From Candidatus Aegiribacteria sp. MLS_C (GTDB taxonomy: Bacteria; Fermentibacterota; Fermentibacteria; Fermentibacterales; JCC-6), in the NCBI GenBank assembly GCA_002030045.1, contig LQBI01000005.1:1-64000 (forward strand): a stretch of 64,000 nucleotides of DNA, in the 5' to 3' direction. Below are positions 7,519 to 38,168 of this stretch, piece by piece. Below the pieces are notes generated by a model that saw nothing but the letters and a program-made list of their open reading frames with translations, had not been told where the DNA came from and searched no databases. Both the position numbers and the translations under genes were made by a program. Position 1 is the first letter of the stretch. Every line of letters starts with the position of its first letter.

Positions 7519-8004
7519 TCAAGGCTCATACCTCTCCGCGAGTCCAGCTATGATGGAGGAGGTCGAGTGGCCGCCCACCAGCGGCACTATCTCCACCCGC
7601 CCCCCCGAGGCCAGGACGGGTTCCGCTCCCACAACGGTATCCACTGTGTAGTCACCGCCCTTGACCAGCACGTCGGGAAGGAGGAGACCGATGAGTTCCG
7701 AAGGAGTGTCCTCGTCGAAGGGGACCAGGTAGTCCACCGACCTGAACTCGGAAAGGACCTCGAGTCTGGAAGGAAGATCGTTGACGGGGCGGCCGTAACC
7801 CTTGAGCCTACTGACGGATCCGTCGGTGTTCACTCCAACCATGAGGGCATCTCCCATGGACCTGGCTGTGCGGAGGATATGGACGTGCCCTGGATGCACG
7901 ATGTCGAAGCAGCCGTTGGTGAACACCAGGACGAGACCCTTCTCGCGAAGCCCCCGGCGAACCCCTTCGGCCTCAGTCCTGGAGAGTACCCTCGCCGCTG
8001 GAAT
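7519..8004 (-). CDS. hldE2 (rfaE2): D-glycero-beta-D-manno-heptose 1-phosphate adenylyltransferase (HldE C-domain type), probable ATT start
   Basis: Transfers AMP to heptose 1-phosphate to make ADP-heptose for the LPS inner core. Nucleotidyltransferase motifs are TNGCFDIVHPGHV (HxGH), VGVNTDGSV, RLEVLSEFRSVDYLVPFDED and VLVKGGDYT. The only canonical start is GTG at 7926, which would begin directly at FTNGCFD and remove the first strand. The frame continues upstream as ARVLSRTEAEGVRRGL, matching the family N-terminus. Starting at ATT (8004-8002) gives 161 residues, the usual family length, and this ATT sits 8-9 nt after a strong GGGAGGTGG site (8011-8020). The gene then overlaps the heptose kinase by 32 bp. 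The start codon is inferred from homology and spacing. Confidence 0.93.
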   Translation of the reverse strand: MPAARVLSRTEAEGVRRGLREKGLVLVFTNGCFDIVHPGHVHILRTARSMGDALMVGVNTDGSVSRLKGYGRPVNDLPSRLEVLSEFRSVDYLVPFDEDTPSELIGLLLPDVLVKGGDYTVDTVVGAEPVLASGGRVEIVPLVGGHSTSSIIAGLAERYEP

Positions 8005-8986
8005 AGCGCTCCACCTCCCTCATGATGTCCTGCGGTCTGACCGCGTAGACCCCCGGCTCGCCGCAGGTGGCAGCTGCGGCGAAGACCGATATCCTGACCC
8101 CGTCCTCCAGAGTCAGGCCCGCCGCCATCGAGAGGGCCATTACGGCTATGACGGTGTCACCGGCTCCGGAGACGTCGAAAACATGCATTGCCGCAGCCGG
8201 TCTGTGGAAGGGCTCCCGGTCCCTCCTGCAGAGAAGGCTGCCCCGGGAACCCAGTGTGATGAGCACCGCTCCCGCCTCGAGCCTCTGAAGGATATCGTTC
8301 CCCGCTCCGGCAGCGTCCTCGACTGAAGAAACCTCCCTTCCCAGTGCCATGGATACCTCGAGCCTGTTGGGCTTGAAAAGGTCGCAGCGCCTGTATTCAA
8401 AGAAATTGATGAACTTGGGGTCCACTGCCACCGGCACTCCACGGCTTCCGGCGATGTCGATGATCCGGGGTATGAGCCCGGGTGTCAGGACGCCCTTGTT
8501 GTAATCCTCCAGGACCACCACGTCCATACCGTCCATCAGCCCGGAGATCCCGCCCAGGATCCTGTCAGCAAGCTCCGCGGACACGGGACGGGTGACCTCC
8601 CTGTCAAGCCTTATCAGCTGATGACCGGATGACATGACCCTGGTCTTGGAGGTGGTGGGTCTCCGGTCGTCCATCACCAGAGCGGTGGTATCGATGCCCT
8701 CTGCGGAGAGGAGGTCCGTCAGGATCTCGCCCTCCCTGTCCAGTCCGGCGGTCCCGGCCATGAAGGGGATCCCTCCCAGGGACAAGATGTTCCGTGCCAC
8801 ATTGGCGGCACCCCCCGGGACCCAGTGGCCCTCGCTGCTCTCCAGTGACACTATCGGCACAGGCGCCTCGGGGGATATCCTGTCAACCCTGCCCTCCAGG
8901 TAGTGGTCCAGAATGAGGTCCCCCACGACTAGAACCCTTTTCCCGCGCAGGCATTCGAGTATGTTTCCAATGTTGTCAGGTATCAC
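7973..8986 (-). CDS. hldE1 (rfaE1): D-glycero-beta-D-manno-heptose 7-phosphate kinase (HldE N-domain type)
   Basis: PfkB-family kinase that phosphorylates heptose 7-phosphate at C1 in ADP-heptose synthesis. Motifs include VLVVGDLILDHYLEG, PGGAANVARN, VVLEDYNKGVL, VDPKFINFFEY, LFKPNRLE and the catalytic DVSGAGDTVIAV near the C-terminus. The GTG at 8986 was chosen because GGAGG lies 7 nt upstream and it gives 337 residues, matching the kinase half of bifunctional HldE; codons further upstream are promoter. In E. coli the kinase and adenylyltransferase are one protein (HldE); here they are two overlapping genes, as in several other phyla. Confidence 0.95.
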   Translation of the reverse strand: MIPDNIGNILECLRGKRVLVVGDLILDHYLEGRVDRISPEAPVPIVSLESSEGHWVPGGAANVARNILSLGGIPFMAGTAGLDREGEILTDLLSAEGIDTTALVMDDRRPTTSKTRVMSSGHQLIRLDREVTRPVSAELADRILGGISGLMDGMDVVVLEDYNKGVLTPGLIPRIIDIAGSRGVPVAVDPKFINFFEYRRCDLFKPNRLEVSMALGREVSSVEDAAGAGNDILQRLEAGAVLITLGSRGSLLCRRDREPFHRPAAAMHVFDVSGAGDTVIAVMALSMAAGLTLEDGVRISVFAAAATCGEPGVYAVRPQDIMREVERYSSGEGTLQD

Positions 8987-9007
8987 AGATACCTCCGTCC
9001 GGGAATC

Positions 9008-18467: not shown

Positions 18468-18740
18468 GTGACTAAAAAAGATCTCATCGCCCATGTAGCT
18501 GACAACGCCTCCATCACCAAGAAGGAAGCCGGCATCGCCGTCGATGCAGTCCTCGATGGCATCAAGCGTTCTCTCAAGAAGGGCGACAAAGTCAGCCTTG
18601 TCGGTTTCGGCACTTTCTCCGTGAAGCATCGCAAGAAGAGGACCGGTGTCAACCCCAGCACCAAGAGGAAGATGGAGTACCCGGCAAAAAAGGTCCCTCA
18701 TTTCAAGCCTGGCAAGGGTCTGAAGGACAGCGTCCTCTAG
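18468..18740 (+). CDS. hup: HU-family DNA-binding protein
   Basis: 90 residues, full length for HU/IHF. It begins TKKDLIAHVADNASITKKEA and carries the family signature GFGTFSVKHRKKRTGVNPST in the DNA-binding arm, ending KKVPHFKPGKGLKDSVL. HU bends and compacts DNA as a dimer. The GTG at 18468 is preceded by GAGAGGGGG and gives the canonical N-terminus. It is monocistronic by position, with an A+T-rich promoter region upstream and a terminator hairpin downstream. Confidence 0.96.
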   Translation: MTKKDLIAHVADNASITKKEAGIAVDAVLDGIKRSLKKGDKVSLVGFGTFSVKHRKKRTGVNPSTKRKMEYPAKKVPHFKPGKGLKDSVL

Positions 18741-18756
18741 TCCACCAGCATACGGC

Positions 18757-18780
18757 GGGAGGCGGCTTCGTCCGCCTCCC
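18757..18780 (+). terminator. Hairpin terminator after HU
   Basis: A 9-bp perfect stem GGGAGGCGG (18757-18765) / CCGCCTCCC (18772-18780) with a 6-nt loop lies 17 bp after the stop. Only a short T tract follows (CCATGTTTCCC). Confidence 0.75.
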
Positions 18781-18962
18781 CCATGTTTCCCGCTATCATC
18801 ATCGTTACGGATGCTTCATCAGCAGCCCTTCCATTCCTGTTATGCGGCAGCTCGGACTTCCGGAGCCTTCTGGCCCGTCGGTCCGGGTCCCATTAGATTA
18901 ACCGCCGTATTCACAGGACCGCCCCCGGAGCGGTCGGATCGAGAACCGGATCGGACGGACCC

Positions 18963-20213
18963 ATGAGAAAAGGAACCGGGATCGCACTGGCGGTATGCAT
19001 GGCGGTATCGGCGGCGGTGACCCTGTCCATGCTTCAGACCGAGACCCACACCAACTCCTCCAGCAGGATGGCGACGGTGGAATCCCTCGCTTCCAGGGGC
19101 ACCTTCGTAATAGACGGCTCGCCTTTCTCCGATACCGTGGACAGGGTGGTCATAGACGGCCGAAGCTATTCCTCGAAACCGCCTGTCCTCTCAGTCCTGG
19201 CCGCGGGGGCCTACAGGGTCTTCTCCAGTCTCACCGGCCTCACCTTCCGGACCGATCCCGTCGCGTCCATCGTATTCGTCAACACAGTCACCGGAGCCCT
19301 GCCCTACCTCCTGATGGTCTACTTCTTCTACCGGTTCGTTCTGGAGCTTTTCGGCCCCGGCCGTACGGCGACCCTGGGTCTCGTCGTCTTCTCCTTCAAC
19401 TTCATCGGTCTCGGGTACGCAACGGACATCAACAACCACACCCCCGCCGCCGCCTGCCTGCTGGTCTCCTTCTTCCTCGCCTACAGGTCAAGGCATCGGG
19501 CAGAACCTGTCGCCGGCACCTGTCACTGGCTGATGTCCGGTTTCCTGGCAGGCCTGGCATCCACATTCGAGTTCTGGGGAGGTATCTTCGCGGTCTCGTT
19601 CGCCGTCTACCTCTTCCGGCACGACCCCAGGAGGACGCTGCTCCTGTTCCTTCCGGCGGCCGCTCTTCCGGTTGCCGTCCACTTCCTCCTCAGCCTGATA
19701 TCGACTGGATCTCTCCTTCCCGTCTACCTTAGAGGCGACCTGTACCTCTTCCGGGACGGATACTGGACCGACCCGGTGGGGATCGACGCTCTGAACGAGC
19801 CCAAATACATCTACTTCTTCAATATACTTCTGGGACACCACGGGCTGTTCTCCATGACACCGGTCTTTCTCCTGGCTGCCTGGAGCATCGTGAAGACGGT
19901 ACGGGACCGGGGGAAGAGGATGCCCGAAGCCCTGGCGGTGGGAGTTCCGGTCCTGCTCACCCTTCTCCTGCTGGGCATCCGCACCAGGAACTACGGAGGG
20001 GTCTGCGCAGGCCTGCGCTGGATGATACTGGCAATGCCCCTGCTGTTCCTCTTCGTGGCTGAATGGATCGACCGGCACAGATCCGGAAGGGCCATGGTCC
20101 TCCTTGCCGTCCTGTTCCTGATCGGCCTGGCCATGGCGGCGGACGTTCCATGGGCAAACGCCGGTCCCTGGCACAATTCGGCATGGCACAAATACGTCTT
20201 CGGTCTCTACTGA
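18963..20213 (+). CDS. Polytopic membrane protein, possible lipid-linked glycosyltransferase
   Basis: 416 residues with about nine or ten hydrophobic segments. The N-terminal part after the first helix reads NSSSRMATVESLASRGTFVI, SPFSDTVDRVVIDGRSYSSK and PPVLSVLAAGAYRVF, a pattern I associate with uncharacterised integral membrane proteins related to GT39/ArnT-like glycosyltransferases, where an acidic loop between helices 1 and 2 is catalytic. Assignment to that superfamily is tentative. Its 3' end (GPWHNSAWHKYVFGLY) is repeated as a decayed copy at 21386-21476. It lies near two GT9 genes, which fits surface glycan synthesis. Confidence 0.75.
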   Translation: MRKGTGIALAVCMAVSAAVTLSMLQTETHTNSSSRMATVESLASRGTFVIDGSPFSDTVDRVVIDGRSYSSKPPVLSVLAAGAYRVFSSLTGLTFRTDPVASIVFVNTVTGALPYLLMVYFFYRFVLELFGPGRTATLGLVVFSFNFIGLGYATDINNHTPAAACLLVSFFLAYRSRHRAEPVAGTCHWLMSGFLAGLASTFEFWGGIFAVSFAVYLFRHDPRRTLLLFLPAAALPVAVHFLLSLISTGSLLPVYLRGDLYLFRDGYWTDPVGIDALNEPKYIYFFNILLGHHGLFSMTPVFLLAAWSIVKTVRDRGKRMPEALAVGVPVLLTLLLLGIRTRNYGGVCAGLRWMILAMPLLFLFVAEWIDRHRSGRAMVLLAVLFLIGLAMAADVPWANAGPWHNSAWHKYVFGLY

Positions 20214-20290
20214 CCAGGGGAGAGTGCCACCAGTTCCCGCACCTCCCAACCGACACTTTCCGGTCTGACGGAACCCGGGGCTTCGGCGGA
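20207..20290 (-). pseudogene. Relic of a GT9 glycosyltransferase C-terminus
   Basis: Read on the minus strand, 20290-20207 gives SAEAPGSVRPESVGWEVREL then VALSPGQ-stop. This aligns without gaps to the C-terminus of the intact GT9 gene at 21470 (SAEDLGSIHADGVVSAVREL, VALSLGR-stop), including the stop position. Homology ends just upstream, so only the last 27 codons remain. It converges with and overlaps the end of the membrane protein gene, the same tail-to-tail arrangement as at 21386-21476. Confidence 0.8.
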
Positions 20291-20452
20291 CCTGCCTGTG
20301 CTCCCCGCCTCGCTCCGCACGGCTTCAGCTGCCGCGGTGAATTAGAACGGAGACGCAGCAGGATCACTTTGCAGTTCATCCGGGTTACTTGAAAAGTTGC
20401 CCGCCGGAAGGGTCCAGTGCAGCTTCAGAAACCTGAATCCCAGATCACCTGC

Positions 20453-20481
20453 TTGACAGGCCGCTGTGTTATTCCGATAAT
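20453..20481 (+). promoter_or_regulatory. Sigma-70-type promoter of the small-peptide/DUF4230 operon
   Basis: TTGACA (20453-20458) and GATAAT (20476-20481) are separated by exactly 17 bp, 33 bp upstream of the TTG start of the 23-residue peptide. The surrounding bases are A+T-rich compared with the coding regions. Confidence 0.7.
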
Positions 20482-20513
20482 GATTTGAGAAATAACAAGA
20501 AGGGGTGATCGTT

Positions 20514-20585
20514 TTGAGGCACATAATAACAGCCGTGGTGGTGATCGTTGCAATTATCCTGATACTGAGATTCGTTCAGTGCTGA
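20514..20585 (+). CDS. 23-residue single-span membrane peptide
   Basis: TTG start with AAGGGGTGA about 6-13 nt upstream, then 22 codons giving RHIITAVVVIVAIILILRFV and QC. It is almost entirely one hydrophobic helix with a basic N-terminus and a terminal Cys. A strong promoter stands directly upstream, and the stop overlaps the GTG start of the DUF4230 gene (GTGCTGA). Such a peptide could serve as a leader for coupling or as a membrane partner of the next protein. Coding status rests on promoter, spacing and coupling, not on homology. Confidence 0.55.
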   Translation: MRHIITAVVVIVAIILILRFVQC

Positions 20586-21190
20586 AGCTGCCGATGAGGA
20601 AGCTTCTGGGTTTCACCGCTTTGCTCGTTTTCCTGATGGTCCTTGCCATCCTCCTGTCCATAATGGACATAATCGATCTCAGGGGTATCGTCGGTTTCTC
20701 CAGGAGTTCCACATCCATACTCCAGGTCCTCAGGTCGGAGAGTCTCATGTTCCTTGCCACGGACAGGGTTACCACATACATCTACACTGATATCTGCGAT
20801 AACAGCCTTATCATGGGAAATCGGGAGGGTGTGCTGATCATGAAGGTCACCTACCTTTTCGGTCTTGACCTTTCGGTCCTGACGGTCGATTCCATTCAGC
20901 AGACATCCGGCGGGTACATAATCCATCTGCCGGACCTCGAACTCCTTGAAATGTCCCCTGACCTGACGACGGCGGAGCTATACACCAAGACATCCGGGCT
21001 GGTATGGCTCCACGACAGGATATCAGGCTACGATATGCATGAAGCCCTGCTTTCGCAGATGGATTCCGTGGCCACGGAGTTCCTCTTCTCGGAAGGGCTT
21101 CTTCCGGAGAGGTCCGAGATAGTATCCCGCCTGAACGGTTTCGCACCGGTCCTATCCGAGTATGCGGGAGCGGACGTTGTCTTCCAGTAG
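20579..21190 (+). CDS. DUF4230 family membrane-anchored protein
   Basis: 203 residues. An N-terminal transmembrane helix (residues about 9-30) precedes an extracytoplasmic region fitting DUF4230: ATDRVTTYIYTDICDNSLIM, VLIMKVTYLFGLDLSVLTVD, YIIHLPDLELLEMSPDLTT. Function of the family is unknown. The GTG at 20579 overlaps the preceding peptide's stop; ATG at 20594 is an alternative start. It is followed by a palindromic hairpin and the duplicated relic region, so the two-gene unit stands alone. Confidence 0.8.
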   Translation: MLKLPMRKLLGFTALLVFLMVLAILLSIMDIIDLRGIVGFSRSSTSILQVLRSESLMFLATDRVTTYIYTDICDNSLIMGNREGVLIMKVTYLFGLDLSVLTVDSIQQTSGGYIIHLPDLELLEMSPDLTTAELYTKTSGLVWLHDRISGYDMHEALLSQMDSVATEFLFSEGLLPERSEIVSRLNGFAPVLSEYAGADVVFQ

Positions 21191-21207
21191 GGATACTGCA
21201 GTCCCCG

Positions 21208-21223
21208 GGCAACGATCGTTGCC
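21208..21223 (+). terminator. Perfect 16-bp palindrome after the DUF4230 gene
   Basis: GGCAACGATCGTTGCC is a perfect inverted repeat 18 bp after the stop. It lacks a T tract, so it may be a weak terminator or a binding site. The rest of 21224-21385 shows nothing I recognise. Confidence 0.4.
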
Positions 21224-21385
21224 TGCCGTCGCCTGGGACCGGGGGTTCAGCATTCACATGTGATCTGTTCGCTATTCAGGAAACTCCCGTCAGCGTAGAT
21301 CGGTCATTCACCATATTCGGATCCTTCCGGCTACTCGGGAGAGTATTTTCGAACTGACAGCCTGCCGGAGGCGGAATGGATCCAC

Positions 21386-21476
21386 CGGCCCGGCCATGGC
21401 AGCGGACGTTCCACGGACAAGCGCCGGTCCCCGGCACACCTAGGCATGGCACGAATACGTCTTCGGCCTCTACCGA
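21386..21476 (+). pseudogene. Relic of the membrane-protein gene 3' end
   Basis: This stretch aligns without gaps to 20123-20213. In the parental frame it reads AMAADVPRTSAGPRHT, stop, AWHEYVFGLYR. Three signs of decay are seen: tryptophan TGG codons changed to CGG, an in-frame TAG at 21441-21443, and loss of the terminal stop (TGA to CGA). The homology continues through 21553 into the coding end of the GT9 gene and matches 20214-20290, so both loci derive from one duplicated segment. Confidence 0.85.
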
Positions 21477-22552
21477 CCCAGACTGAGCGCCACCAGTTCC
21501 CTCACCGCCGAAACGACACCGTCCGCATGTATGGAACCCAGGTCTTCGGCGGATTCCGAAGTGATGACGCGGCAGGGCACCTTCCACGGATACCACTCCG
21601 GAAGCGAGGGGTCCCGGGGCAGGTACATGCCCACCACCGGCACGCCCATGGACGCGGCCAGATGAACCACCGACGTGTCGGGACTTATCAGCAGGGCGGT
21701 TCCCCTGAGCAGGGCGGCAAGGTGGAGGATGGTGGGTGTCGGCGGTGATACCAGTGCGCCTACTGCGCGGATACCGATCCCCTCCGCCTTCCTCCTGTCC
21801 GAAGGAGACGACAGGAGCAGCGGGACCAGTCCCATCGCGAGGAGGTCTCGGCAGACCGAGACGTATCTGTCCGTTCCCCAGTCCCTGTCGGGTCCGCCTG
21901 CGGATATGTTCACAACGGCACAGTCTCCCGGGGACGGGTCGGAGGCTTCCCAGAATCTCCTGGCGAATTCCTCCTCCTCCCGGGAGTTCCTGACTTCACG
22001 GTCCAGCCGTTCGAGGGGCAGCTCCCTCCCCAGGCCCGACAGGAGTGCCGAGAAGGCATCCATAATGTGCCCGTCAAAGGGGGCGGTTACTCGGATATTG
22101 AAGGGAAGCCTGTTATGGCGGTCCACGTGAAGCCTCCACCTGGCGCCGGACGCAAGGGCGTAGACGAGTGATGTCGTGGAATCGTGCATGTGCATGTCCA
22201 CAACGGCGTCCGGAGCGTATTCCCTCACCCTGATCAGGGAGGAGACGAAATCGGCAGGAGCCTTCCCGCTGACGAAGAGGTCCACTCCCTCCTCGTGCTT
22301 CAGTACGATGCTGTTGGGCTCCGAGGCCACGACCCCGATGCTTCGCAGCCCGTGCACTTCCCTGAGCTTCCGTATCAGGGGAAGGGTCATGACCATGTCG
22401 CCTATCCTGTCCTGCCTCATCAGCAGGACCCTGTCCAGTCTCTCGCCCTCCGGTACGGAGACCCCGGTCTCCGCGGAGTTCACAGCCCGGTCGAGACTCC
22501 TGTACAGGAGCCGCCTCCCTCCGACCTCGATCCTCTTCAGGAGACCTCTCAT
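21470..22552 (-). CDS. Glycosyltransferase family 9 (heptosyltransferase-like)
   Basis: 360 residues with the GT9/ADP-heptose:LPS heptosyltransferase layout. The N-terminal domain has RLDRVLLMRQDRIGDMVMTL and VVDMHMHDST. The C-terminal nucleotide-binding domain has VVNISAGGPDRDWGTDRYVS and LLISPDTSVVHLAASMGVPV, the conserved D-T-x-x-x-H-x-A-A motif. It probably adds a heptose or similar sugar to the LPS core. It overlaps the second GT9 gene by ATGA and is its paralogue. Its last 28 codons overlap the duplicated segment described at 21386-21553. Substrate cannot be read from sequence. Confidence 0.9.
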   Translation of the reverse strand: MRGLLKRIEVGGRRLLYRSLDRAVNSAETGVSVPEGERLDRVLLMRQDRIGDMVMTLPLIRKLREVHGLRSIGVVASEPNSIVLKHEEGVDLFVSGKAPADFVSSLIRVREYAPDAVVDMHMHDSTTSLVYALASGARWRLHVDRHNRLPFNIRVTAPFDGHIMDAFSALLSGLGRELPLERLDREVRNSREEEEFARRFWEASDPSPGDCAVVNISAGGPDRDWGTDRYVSVCRDLLAMGLVPLLLSSPSDRRKAEGIGIRAVGALVSPPTPTILHLAALLRGTALLISPDTSVVHLAASMGVPVVGMYLPRDPSLPEWYPWKVPCRVITSESAEDLGSIHADGVVSAVRELVALSLGR

Positions 22553-23652
22553 ATTTCCGTCCCCTGTGCGCGGGTCCTGCAGGAGAGCCTCTCCACCGCA
22601 TCCATCACGTCACCGACGGCAATGGACGAAACGGCTCCCTCCCCCATGAGGACCTCGTTCTCCACCCTCCAGGGAAACCACAGCGGAAGGTGCTCCTCGT
22701 TGGGCACGTAGAGCCCGACGGTGGGCACCCCGTAGGAGGATGCCACATGGACAAGTCCCGTGTCCGGCGTCACGAACATGGCCATGTCCCTTATCAGGGC
22801 CGCCGCGTGCAGTATTCCGGGACATGGCGGCGCGGCAAGCGTGCCGGGGACAGCTACCGCCAGCGCGGTAACTTCCGAATGCTCCGAGGGCACGGAGAAC
22901 AGAACCGGCTTCCGCCCGCTCCCCACGAGAAGGGTGCAGAGTTCCCGGACCCCTGCCAGGGGCCACGAATGGAGCGGGTCCCTGGCGGAGATATTGATGC
23001 CTACGGTCCTGCCCCTGTACCGGAGTCCCGCCGTCCGCCAGAATCCGTCTGCGAAATCCAGTTCGGCTGTGGACAGCCTCACTTCCCTGTCCAGGTCGGC
23101 GTCCGGTATGTCCCTCCCCAGGCCGCACAGGAGCAGCCTGGTCATGTCCGAGTTGTGCATCCTGGCAGTCGGCATGGGGACCCTTACGTTGAAGGGAAGC
23201 CTGCGGGTTCGGTTGTCGGCGCTCAGCATCCATTCGGCGCCTGAGACGACCCCGTAGATGAAGCTGGTCGTGGAATCGTAATGCATCCTTGTGTCGACCA
23301 CCGCGTTCGGCCGGAACCGCCTGGCCAGCAGGAGGCTTCGAAGGTACGTCGCCGGTTCGCTGTCGTACAGTATGGCTGTGAACTCCGGCTCGTATTTCAG
23401 AAGGTCCCTGTTGCGCCTGGAGACCACTATTCCGACCCTTGCCCGAGGGAAAACCTCCCTGGTTTTCCGGAACCAGGGAAGGCATACCATGAGGTCGCCG
23501 ACGGCATCCCAGCGCATCAGCAGTATCGAACGAAGCCGGGTCCCGGCGGGAATGGATCCCACCGCATCGCTGCTCCCCCGGATCGAACGCATCGCCCCGG
23601 CGAGAAGCCTCCTGCCCGCACGTTCGATATTCCCGGCCATGTCCATCTTCAA
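22549..23652 (-). CDS. Glycosyltransferase family 9 (heptosyltransferase-like), paralogue
   Basis: 367 residues, same fold as the downstream neighbour: LRSILLMRWDAVGDLMVCLP, VVDTRMHYDSTTSFIYG, VGINISARDPLHSWPLAGV and FVTPDTGLVHVASSYGVPTV. Shared segments such as LPFNVRV and LxGLGRDIPxxxLDREVR show that the pair arose by tandem duplication. The start is TTG at 23652, with GAGGA just upstream. It is the first gene of a two-gene minus-strand unit, divergent from thioredoxin. Confidence 0.9.
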   Translation of the reverse strand: MKMDMAGNIERAGRRLLAGAMRSIRGSSDAVGSIPAGTRLRSILLMRWDAVGDLMVCLPWFRKTREVFPRARVGIVVSRRNRDLLKYEPEFTAILYDSEPATYLRSLLLARRFRPNAVVDTRMHYDSTTSFIYGVVSGAEWMLSADNRTRRLPFNVRVPMPTARMHNSDMTRLLLCGLGRDIPDADLDREVRLSTAELDFADGFWRTAGLRYRGRTVGINISARDPLHSWPLAGVRELCTLLVGSGRKPVLFSVPSEHSEVTALAVAVPGTLAAPPCPGILHAAALIRDMAMFVTPDTGLVHVASSYGVPTVGLYVPNEEHLPLWFPWRVENEVLMGEGAVSSIAVGDVMDAVERLSCRTRAQGTEI

Positions 23653-35557: not shown

Positions 35558-36709
35558 ATGACGGTTCCTTTCCTTGACCTGAAAACCCAGTACCTCCAAA
35601 TTAAGGACGAGATAGACAGGGAACTCTCGGAAGTCCTCGACACGTGCCACTACGTGCTCGGGCCTAAGGTTGCGGCTTTCGAGGAAAAGTTCGCCGGAAT
35701 AGCGGGAACCAGGCACTGCATAGCCGTGTCCAGCGGCACCGCGGCGGTGCACCTCATGCTATGGGCTGCCGACCTGGAGCCCGGAAGCGGGATAATATTG
35801 CCCCCCAACACCTTCACGGCCTCAGCCGAAGGCGTTGTCCTGGCCGGCCACGTTCCCGTTTTCGCGGATGTCGACAGGGACACCCTCAATCTCTCTCCTG
35901 ACCGGGTCAACGAACTCCTGAAGGGTTCCGCCGACTCGAAGGGAAGGCCGGTGGACCCGAAGACAGGCGCGGTCATCAGGGGTATCCTGGCGGTCGACCT
36001 TTACGGACAGCCTGCTGCCCTGCCGGAGCTGGAGAGAATAGCCGGTGAGTACGGGCTCCTGCTTTTCGAGGACGCCTGCCAGGCCCACGACGCTTCGAGG
36101 GAGGGCAGGGCCGCCGGAAGCTTCGGGAGCGCCGCAGCCTTCAGCTTCTACCCCGGCAAGAACATGGGAGCCTTCGGAGAGGGAGGCGCCGTCACCACCG
36201 ATTCGGACGACATGGCAGCAAGGGCAAGGTGCCTTCGGGACCACGGCTCCCGTGAGAAGTACTACTACGACTTCATCGGGCACAACTACAGGATGTCGGC
36301 GTTCCAGGGAGCGGTCCTGGGTGTCAAGGCCGACCGTATACACGATTGGAACGACAGGCGAATAAGGGCGGCGTCCGAATACCGTCGTCTTCTGAGCGGC
36401 CTGCCACTGGAACTGCCCGAGGAGTCCGGGGACGTCAGGCACGTCTATCATCTCTTCGCCGTTCACACGCCGGACCGGGACGAACTCCGGGCTTTCCTCG
36501 GAGAAAGAGGCGTGGCATCCGGCCTTCATTACCCGCTACCCCTCCACACGCAGAAGGCGTACGCATATCTGGGGTACGGCAAGGGAGATTTCCCCGTCTC
36601 GGAATGGAACAGCGAATGCAACCTCACGCTGCCCATGTTCCCCGATATCACGGCCGAGCAGCTGCAGACCGTGGCGCAGGGAATCGTGGAATTCTTCTCC
36701 GGGAGGTAG
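35558..36709 (+). CDS. DegT/DnrJ/EryC1/StrS-family sugar aminotransferase
   Basis: 383 residues of the PLP-dependent aminotransferase family that aminates nucleotide-linked ketosugars. It begins PFLDLKTQYLQIKDEIDREL. The PLP lysine lies in FSFYPGKNMGAFGEGGAV near residue 205, with VSSGTAAVHLML and FEDACQAHDA upstream. The start has AGGAGG 8 nt upstream. The next gene, a polyprenyl-phosphate sugar transferase, starts 4 bp downstream. Together they suggest an amino-sugar-containing polysaccharide or O-antigen. Confidence 0.95.
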   Translation: MTVPFLDLKTQYLQIKDEIDRELSEVLDTCHYVLGPKVAAFEEKFAGIAGTRHCIAVSSGTAAVHLMLWAADLEPGSGIILPPNTFTASAEGVVLAGHVPVFADVDRDTLNLSPDRVNELLKGSADSKGRPVDPKTGAVIRGILAVDLYGQPAALPELERIAGEYGLLLFEDACQAHDASREGRAAGSFGSAAAFSFYPGKNMGAFGEGGAVTTDSDDMAARARCLRDHGSREKYYYDFIGHNYRMSAFQGAVLGVKADRIHDWNDRRIRAASEYRRLLSGLPLELPEESGDVRHVYHLFAVHTPDRDELRAFLGERGVASGLHYPLPLHTQKAYAYLGYGKGDFPVSEWNSECNLTLPMFPDITAEQLQTVAQGIVEFFSGR

Positions 36710-36713
36710 ACTC

Positions 36714-38168
36714 TTGCCCCTCAGGCGAAGTCACCAGATCAACAGACTGTATTTCCTGACGCTGCTGTTCTACGATTTCGCCATAATAGCGGCTTCGATC
36801 CTGATCGCCGTCAGGATGAGGTTCGGTCAGTTCGTGTCACCGGAGGTCCCGCTCACTGCCATGGTGGGCACATGGGTCTTCCTGAACTTCTTCCAGATGC
36901 TGGCCATGATGGTGGAGAACCTGTACGTGGTGAGGACCACGGTGAACAGGTCCATGAACATCTTCAGGACGGTGAGGATGATCTTCGCCATCACGGTACT
37001 GTATATACTGTACCTGTTCCTGGCGCATTTCCCCTCGGATTCCTACATATGCAGCAGGCTGACCATCATATATGTGATGTTCTTCTGGATTTCGCTGACG
37101 GCGGTCTCCAGGCTGCTGCTGGTCCCGCGGACCTTCTCGCTGATCGCACGACTGCTGGGTATGAACCGGGTCCCGATCATCATCTTCGGTGATGAGAGAA
37201 TCTCGCAGAGCATCAGGAACTCCATGATGAGGTCCACCGCATATGCAAAACTGCTGGATCTCAGCATCTGCAGCGACCGGCTGCCTGACGATCCCGACGG
37301 GAAGTTCCAGGCATGCATGGATATCATGGAGAAGAGAAGGGCCCGTGAGATCATGATGGTCTTCGGGAACGAGGATTTCGACGACATCGCCAGGTTCTCG
37401 ATGCTCACGAGGCGTGCGGGGGTTCCCTTCGTGATCTTCTCCACCCGAATACTGGAACTGGGATACTTCGATCCCTGGCTCACGACGGGAAACTACGGGG
37501 CGATGACTTTCTGCAGCAGGGGATGGACCGCGAACTTCAGGAGGCTGTGGCGGCTGGTGGACCTGGCGGCTTCCATTACAGGGATCGTCCTGTTCCTGCC
37601 GGTCATCCTTCTTACAGTACCCGCCATAGCTCTCACCAGCAGGGGCGGAGTCCTCTTCAGGCAGACAAGGATCGGCAGGGACAGGAAGCCTTTCACGTTC
37701 TACAAGTTCAGGTCCATGAGGACCGACGCCGAAGACAGGCATACCGATCACAGGAAGTACTTCAGGGAATACGTCAGCGGGAGCGCCGCCTCCGACACAG
37801 GGAACGGCAAGGTCTTCAAATCGGTCAACCCCAGAGCACTCACCCCGGTGGGAAGGATCATAAGGAAGACCTCTCTCGATGAACTTCCTCAGATGCTCAA
37901 CGTGCTCAAGGGTGAAATGAGCATCGTGGGCCCCCGACCCTGCATAGATTACGAGCTGGAGCACTACGACAGGGAATGGCTCCAGCAGAGGTTCACCGTG
38001 AAACCGGGCCTGACGGGCATATGGCAGGTCTACGGCCGGAGCAGGCTCAGCTTCGAGAAATCGCAGTTCCTGGACTTCGTATATGTGATCTCGAGGACGG
38101 ACGGTCTCAACCTGCGCCTGATACTGATGACCTTCCCCATGATGCTCTTCGGGAAGGGCGGACTCTAG
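36714..38168 (+). CDS. Undecaprenyl-phosphate sugar phosphotransferase (bacterial sugar transferase family)
   Basis: 484 residues with the WbaP-like layout: four N-terminal transmembrane helices (residues about 12-130), a Rossmann-like central region (VPIIIFGDERISQSIRNSMM), another helix near 280-305 and the catalytic PF02397 domain. Catalytic-domain motifs are FRQTRIGRDRKPFTFYKFRS, RKTSLDELPQMLNVLKGEMS, IVGPRP and KPGLTGIWQVYGRS. It transfers a sugar phosphate from a nucleotide sugar to undecaprenyl phosphate, the first step of exopolysaccharide, capsule or O-antigen units. The TTG start has GGGAGGT about 6 nt upstream. Its stop overlaps the convergent 130-residue gene by 4 bp. Confidence 0.93.
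   Translation: MPLRRSHQINRLYFLTLLFYDFAIIAASILIAVRMRFGQFVSPEVPLTAMVGTWVFLNFFQMLAMMVENLYVVRTTVNRSMNIFRTVRMIFAITVLYILYLFLAHFPSDSYICSRLTIIYVMFFWISLTAVSRLLLVPRTFSLIARLLGMNRVPIIIFGDERISQSIRNSMMRSTAYAKLLDLSICSDRLPDDPDGKFQACMDIMEKRRAREIMMVFGNEDFDDIARFSMLTRRAGVPFVIFSTRILELGYFDPWLTTGNYGAMTFCSRGWTANFRRLWRLVDLAASITGIVLFLPVILLTVPAIALTSRGGVLFRQTRIGRDRKPFTFYKFRSMRTDAEDRHTDHRKYFREYVSGSAASDTGNGKVFKSVNPRALTPVGRIIRKTSLDELPQMLNVLKGEMSIVGPRPCIDYELEHYDREWLQQRFTVKPGLTGIWQVYGRSRLSFEKSQFLDFVYVISRTDGLNLRLILMTFPMMLFGKGGL

What the first reader, a model, noticed from the sequence alone, without database searches (positions are those of the whole stretch)
20123..21553. Duplicated gene pair with reciprocal decay
Segments 20123-20290 and 21386-21553 (168 bp each) align without gaps. 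Each holds the tail of a membrane-protein gene and, on the other strand, the overlapping tail of a GT9 gene. In the left copy the membrane gene is intact and the GT9 is a 27-codon relic; in the right copy the GT9 is intact and the membrane gene is a relic with a TAG. An ancestral tail-to-tail pair was duplicated and each copy lost the opposite member.
Basis: seen in the sequence. Interest (0 to 1): 0.7.

Follow-up and report, generated by a model that had tools for sequence, protein, structure and literature searches.

The report
Gene moved in, duplicating convergent gene ends
In a Candidatus Fermentibacterota genome, a short stretch spanning the overlapping ends of two convergent sugar-surface genes is present twice, on either side of a small gene unit that sits elsewhere in the closest relative; this looks like a gene relocation with a long target duplication, a known kind of event, rather than two full gene pairs that each lost one partner.

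Summary
20123-20290 and 21386-21553 match at 136 of 168 bases without gaps. They are the only two copies in the genome. The repeat extends upstream to 20057 / 21370 across a 50-bp deletion in the right copy, so the duplicated unit was about 234 bp.

The tail-to-tail ancestor is supported: relative G004 has the membrane gene (PMT_2-like) and the GT9 gene overlapping in exactly this geometry, with nothing between them.

The 'reciprocal decay' reading is only partly supported. A short duplication across a convergent junction gives 'intact + tail' and 'tail + intact' by geometry alone. Outside the 234-bp unit no trace of a second GT9 or second membrane gene was found, although a neutral relic of this age (about 13% diverged) would be recognisable. 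The fragments have decayed since: 10 of 10 polarisable differences in the membrane part are changes in the right copy.

The unit between the repeats (promoter, 23-aa membrane microprotein, DUF4230) is a vertical ortholog that sits elsewhere in the nearest relative, so it moved here.

Best fit: relocation by 'insertion with long target duplication', already described in bacteria. Ordinary genome plasticity, neatly fossilised. The conserved microprotein paired with DUF4230 is a side observation that may be new.

The parts
18963..20213 (+). Intact PMT_2-like (dolichyl-phosphate-mannose mannosyltransferase-like) membrane glycosyltransferase, 416 aa
   Evidence: ORF; Pfam PMT_2 1.3e-5, 25.9 bits, just under the 26.1 cut-off; orthologs at 56-66% in G003, G004, G005, G019
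20057..20290 (.). Left copy of the duplicated unit (about 234 bp; ungapped core 20123-20290)
20207..20290 (-). GT9 tail relic: 27 codons plus stop TAG, truncated upstream
   Evidence: translation; compared with ortholog tails
20453..20481 (+). Putative sigma-70 promoter TTGACA-17-GATAAT; the same arrangement (16-18 bp spacer, GATAAT/GATACT/TATAGT) lies upstream of the microprotein in seven other genus members
   Evidence: sequence
20514..20585 (+). Microprotein ORF, 23 aa (TTG start), MRHIITAVVVIVAIILILRFVQC; the C-terminus LRF[VA][QS]C* is conserved in all genus DUF4230 loci and in G037
20594..21190 (+). DUF4230 protein (ORF open from GTG 20579; start at ATG 20594 preferred from orthologs)
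   Evidence: Pfam PF14014 5e-6, 27.1 bits vs cut-off 27; 66-79% to genus orthologs
21370..21553 (.). Right copy of the duplicated unit, with an internal 50-bp deletion (relative to 20073-20122)
21370..21476 (+). PMT_2 tail relic: in-frame TAG, stop codon lost, substitutions at invariant residues
   Evidence: 10/10 polarised changes are on this copy
21470..22552 (-). Intact GT9 (heptosyltransferase family) GT9a, 360 aa
   Evidence: Pfam Glyco_transf_9 9.9e-15; orthologs in nearly all genus members
22549..23652 (-). Second GT9 gene (GT9b), conserved neighbour of GT9a

Best explanation
A complete small transcription unit (promoter, 23-aa membrane microprotein, DUF4230) relocated into the convergent, overlapping junction of a PMT_2-like gene and a GT9 gene. 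The event left about 234 bp of the junction duplicated on both sides ('insertion with long target duplication'). Because the duplicated stretch held only the two gene tails, the left copy kept the whole membrane gene plus an orphan GT9 tail, and the right copy kept the whole GT9 gene plus an orphan membrane tail. Both intact genes and the moved unit kept open reading frames; the orphan tails then decayed neutrally. Shown: the duplication, its limits, the ancestral adjacency in a relative, the orthology of the moved unit, its different location in the closest relative, and the direction of decay. Inferred: that insertion and duplication were one event (staggered break with fill-in, or template switching) rather than two.
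For: G004 has GT9 (C2 6309/6690-7766) and PMT_2 (7757-8998) convergent and overlapping, with the GT9 stop TAG antisense to the same Leu-Tyr codons and the same 37-residue GT9 tail after WYPW; it has no DUF4230. Outgroup genus G019 and G003/G005 have PMT_2 - GT4 - GT9, so the position varies by gene gain and loss and none has DUF4230 there. The closest relative G006 carries DUF4230 (79%) after a class V aminotransferase; in the window genome the orthologous block on C32 stops aligning at the end of the aminotransferase and has no DUF4230. DUF4230 is as diverged from G006 (0.635 at 4-fold sites) as LptD (0.601) and TrxR (0.615), hence vertical, while the repeat copies differ by only 13% (membrane part) and 25% (GT9 part), hence much younger than the split. 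10 of 10 polarisable differences in the membrane part fall on the right relic. The left GT9 relic keeps ancestral residues (PES) that the intact GT9 has lost and has lost invariant ones (L to P, A to E), as expected of an independent fossil. No residual gene bodies flank the fragments. The flanks of the insert are unique in the genome, so no IS element is seen.
Against: No strain with the empty site and none with the repeat but no insert is available, so one-step versus two-step cannot be separated. The two ends of the unit share GGC(T/G)GA (20057-20062, 20285-20290; GGCGGA also at 21370-21375), which would equally suit a microhomology-mediated tandem duplication followed by an insertion. A whole-pair duplication with two precise deletions is not strictly excluded.
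Confidence: 0.66

Rival explanations
1. Two steps: a roughly 234-bp tandem duplication of the convergent junction by microhomology (GGCTGA / GGCGGA) or replication slippage, then a separate insertion of the DUF4230 unit exactly at the novel joint, perhaps with a 6-bp target duplication (GGCGGA on both sides).
For: GGCGGA at 20285-20290 and 21370-21375 bounds the insert; GGC(T/G)GA lies at both ends of the unit. Small tandem duplications are common (established knowledge).
Against: Needs a second event to hit the joint precisely. The 6-mer also arises from homology plus one substitution (the left copy has GGCTGA there), and GGCGGA occurs 52 times on one strand of the window.
Confidence: 0.2
2. 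One reading: the whole membrane-GT9 pair was duplicated and each copy later lost the opposite gene (tandem duplication with random loss), a larger duplication possibly having carried DUF4230 in between.
For: Produces the same final order. A large duplication would also explain how DUF4230 came to lie here. The adjacent pair itself is found in G004.
Against: No remnant of the missing about 1 kb of GT9 or about 1.1 kb of PMT_2 in the flanks or elsewhere in the genome, although the surviving relic is only about 13% diverged. Needs at least two clean deletions, each stopping inside or next to the short shared stretch. DUF4230's ancestral neighbourhood was not found in the window; the orthologous aminotransferase block is on another contig.
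Confidence: 0.1
3. Single-crossover (Campbell-type) integration of a circular DNA that carried the DUF4230 unit plus a homologous membrane/GT9 tail segment from a related lineage; the 19% difference would then be partly pre-existing.
For: Gives long direct repeats around an insert without a transposase. Repeat-flanked gene transposition by circular intermediates is proposed in plants (PMC2869330).
Against: The right copy's membrane tail carries a stop, a lost stop codon and changes at invariant residues, so it decayed in place rather than arriving as a foreign functional tail. DUF4230 divergence matches vertical descent.
Confidence: 0.04

Closest known systems
Insertion with long target duplication (Nobusato et al. 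2000, Gene 259:99-108, as described in PMC1643837 and PMC3031569)
   Same: A gene unit without transposase or IS lies between long direct repeats made of target sequence; a related genome has the single-copy target (here G004's adjacent pair).
   Different: Described mainly for restriction-modification genes in Helicobacter pylori; here the cargo is a microprotein-DUF4230 unit in Candidatus Fermentibacterota, the target is the overlap of two convergent genes, and the event is old enough that the repeats have diverged by 19%.
Tandem duplication with random loss (TDRL; e.g. PMC5975268, PMC2576254)
   Same: Duplicated segment, reciprocal loss, changed gene order, remnants left behind.
   Different: TDRL starts from whole duplicated genes; here no trace of whole second copies exists and the duplicated piece is about 234 bp.
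Flanking-repeat gene transposition in Arabidopsis (PMC2869330)
   Same: Moved genes flanked by direct repeats homologous to the target site in a relative, mostly genic sequence.
   Different: Eukaryotic; circle-mediated mechanism proposed there, with no sign of a circle here.

Membership tests
Insertion with long target duplication | Inserted gene(s) flanked by long direct repeats | tested here: met
   234-bp unit (168-bp ungapped core, 81%) on both sides of the insert 20291-21369
Insertion with long target duplication | Repeat corresponds to single-copy target sequence in a relative lacking the insert | tested here: met
   G004 has one copy of the overlapping PMT_2/GT9 junction and no DUF4230 match in its genome (98% complete). 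G004 is not a close relative (PMT_2 about 64-66% aa identity), so this is an orthologous site, not an isogenic empty site
Insertion with long target duplication | No IS or transposase responsible | tested here: met
   Only the microprotein and DUF4230 are coded between the repeats; flanks unique in the genome
Insertion with long target duplication | Insertion and duplication occur in one event | not testable with these tools
   No strain-level comparison available
   Flanks no more similar to the missing gene bodies than shuffles; no other copy in the genome
   G004 arrangement with identical overlap geometry
IS-type or transposon insertion | Terminal inverted repeats and other copies in the genome | tested here: not met
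   No inverted-repeat pair at the insert ends; no second copy of the insert flanks
PF14014 DUF4230 | Match above the family's curated cut-off | tested here: met
   27.1 bits vs 27; orthologs score higher

The most novel reading that the evidence does not exclude
The promoter-microprotein-DUF4230 unit is a small mobile cassette of its own kind that changes position within this genus (several different neighbourhoods among the genomes seen) by insertion with long target duplication, with a conserved 22-23 aa membrane peptide ending in LRF[VA]QC as an obligate partner of DUF4230.
Probability: 0.1. Interest if true: 0.55.

Novelty: new member of a known kind. Interest (0 to 1): 0.28.

Why it matters
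It is a clean sequence fossil of how a bacterial gene can change place without a transposon: the duplicated target and its asymmetric decay record the ancestral gene order, the size of the duplicated piece and a relative date. It also shows a caution: mirror-image gene remnants do not require two whole genes to have been duplicated and lost.

Tried and rejected
Remnants of the missing gene bodies beside the fragments: none. Insert flanks as genomic repeats or IS ends: unique. GNAT gene that follows DUF4230 in G006, sought in the window genome to locate the donor site: not found (no positive control, so weak). Structure of DUF4230 from an 8-sequence alignment: unusable (pLDDT 44, pTM 0.28), so no fold search was made. 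Terminator hairpin after DUF4230 (21188-21262): no more stable than shuffles (z -0.13), not claimed. Literature on DUF4230: three papers in the library, with one or two occurrences each in the two listed, not read further. A PF14014 sweep of 42 genomes of the phylum showed that DUF4230 is patchy; the RF[VA][QS]C microprotein was not seen beside the more distant DUF4230 genes of G036 and G039.

Full report
WHAT IS THERE. The match continues upstream: 20057-20076 and 21370-21389 agree at 18 of 20 positions and abut the main match once a 50-bp deletion in the right copy, bounded by CGGC, is allowed. The duplicated unit is therefore about 234 bp (20057-20290). Neither the sequence before 21370 nor that after 20290/21553 matches.

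THE GENES. The left gene (18963-20213, +) is a PMT_2-like membrane glycosyltransferase (Pfam 25.9 bits, just below the 26.1 cut-off); the right gene (21470-22552, -) is a GT9 heptosyltransferase-family gene followed by a second GT9. Their 3' ends overlap head-on: in both copies the GT9 stop TAG is read antisense from the membrane gene's Leu-Tyr codons. The left copy carries 27 codons of GT9 tail; the right copy carries the membrane tail with an in-frame TAG and with its own stop changed to CGA.

RELATIVES. Named relatives are Candidatus Fermentibacteraceae / Aegiribacteria metagenome bins, so the window belongs to that group. G004 has the two genes adjacent and overlapping in the same geometry, with the same GT9 tail length, and has no DUF4230. 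G003, G005 and the outgroup genus G019 have a GT4-type gene between them. Others lack the membrane gene, and GT9 faces a sugar-transferase-like gene (the 'M477' ORF) or lies beside other GT4-type genes. The place between HU and GT9 is thus a spot of frequent glycosyltransferase turnover, and an adjacent overlapping PMT_2/GT9 pair was the immediate ancestor here. Whether G004 and the window share one loss of the GT4 gene or lost it independently is not settled; the identical overlap and tail length favour a shared event.

TIMING AND DIRECTION. Within the membrane part, 10 of 10 differences that outgroups can polarise are changes in the right copy, mostly at conserved residues: neutral decay of about 13%. 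The GT9 part differs by 25% (21/84), the sum of decay in the left relic (invariant Leu to Pro, Ala to Glu) and drift of the loosely conserved tail of the intact gene; the relic even keeps residues (PES) that the intact gene has lost. Four-fold-site divergence from the closest relative G006 is about 0.60 in LptD and TrxR, so the duplication is far younger than that split.

THE UNIT BETWEEN THE REPEATS. It consists of a good sigma-70-type promoter match (TTGACA-17-GATAAT, 20453-20481), a 23-aa membrane microprotein (20514-20585) and DUF4230 (20594-21190). The microprotein, ending LRF[VA]QC, stands directly upstream of DUF4230 in all eight genus members with an intact gene, and as ...LRFVSC in G037 of another family. 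DUF4230 is as diverged from G006 as vertical genes are (0.635 vs 0.60-0.615), so it is the resident ortholog. In G006 it follows a class V aminotransferase; the window genome keeps that block on contig C32 but without DUF4230, and the alignment stops at the end of the aminotransferase. The unit therefore stands in a new place. Whether the G006 position was the donor site is not known, since other genus members have the unit in still other neighbourhoods; but the repeat shows that the present place was formerly an uninterrupted junction. The flanks of the insert are unique; no IS is seen.

INTERPRETATION. A duplication that spans only the two tails gives the same picture with no loss: the whole membrane gene can only be at the left and the whole GT9 only at the right. 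The flanks of the fragments show no trace of the missing gene bodies, although a relic of this age is easily recognised, and there are no other copies in the genome. The pattern fits 'insertion with long target duplication', known from H. pylori restriction-modification genes (Nobusato et al. 2000 as described in PMC1643837, and PMC3031569; the original paper was not available here). Whether duplication and insertion were one event cannot be shown; shared GGC(T/G)GA at the ends leaves room for a tandem duplication first.

VERDICT. Real, well explained, of a known kind. The decay is of fragments, not of genes. The most interesting loose end is the microprotein-DUF4230 pair.

Noticed in passing
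20514-20585 (and L026, L027, L028, L029-L032, L033 upstream of DUF4230): A 22-23 aa membrane microprotein ending in LRF[VA]QC* (LRFVSC* in G037) is conserved directly upstream of DUF4230 in all eight genus genomes with an intact DUF4230 and in one genome of another family; a promoter-like TTGACA-(16-18)-TATA-type motif accompanies it in the genus. No literature on it was found in the one search made.
   Followed up: partly
L034 (G016:C11:8225-8290): G016 has only a 22-codon match to the C-terminal end of DUF4230 and no full gene: possibly a relic left by loss of the gene, or a contig-end effect.
   Followed up: no
L066:2924-3307 (G006:C9): The closest relative keeps only the last 125 residues of the sugar-transferase-like 'M477' gene (81% to G004) between HU and a different 614-aa ORF: another gene-tail fragment at the same turnover spot.
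   Followed up: partly
window 18740-18963: The GT2 and M477 genes that follow HU in most relatives are missing in the window, with no recognisable remnant.
   Followed up: partly
L081 (G000:C32, just after the aminotransferase 35759-36811 -): Synteny with G006 stops at the end of the aminotransferase, where G006 has DUF4230 and a GNAT gene; the window genome has a repeat-type secreted-protein-like ORF there instead.
   Followed up: partly
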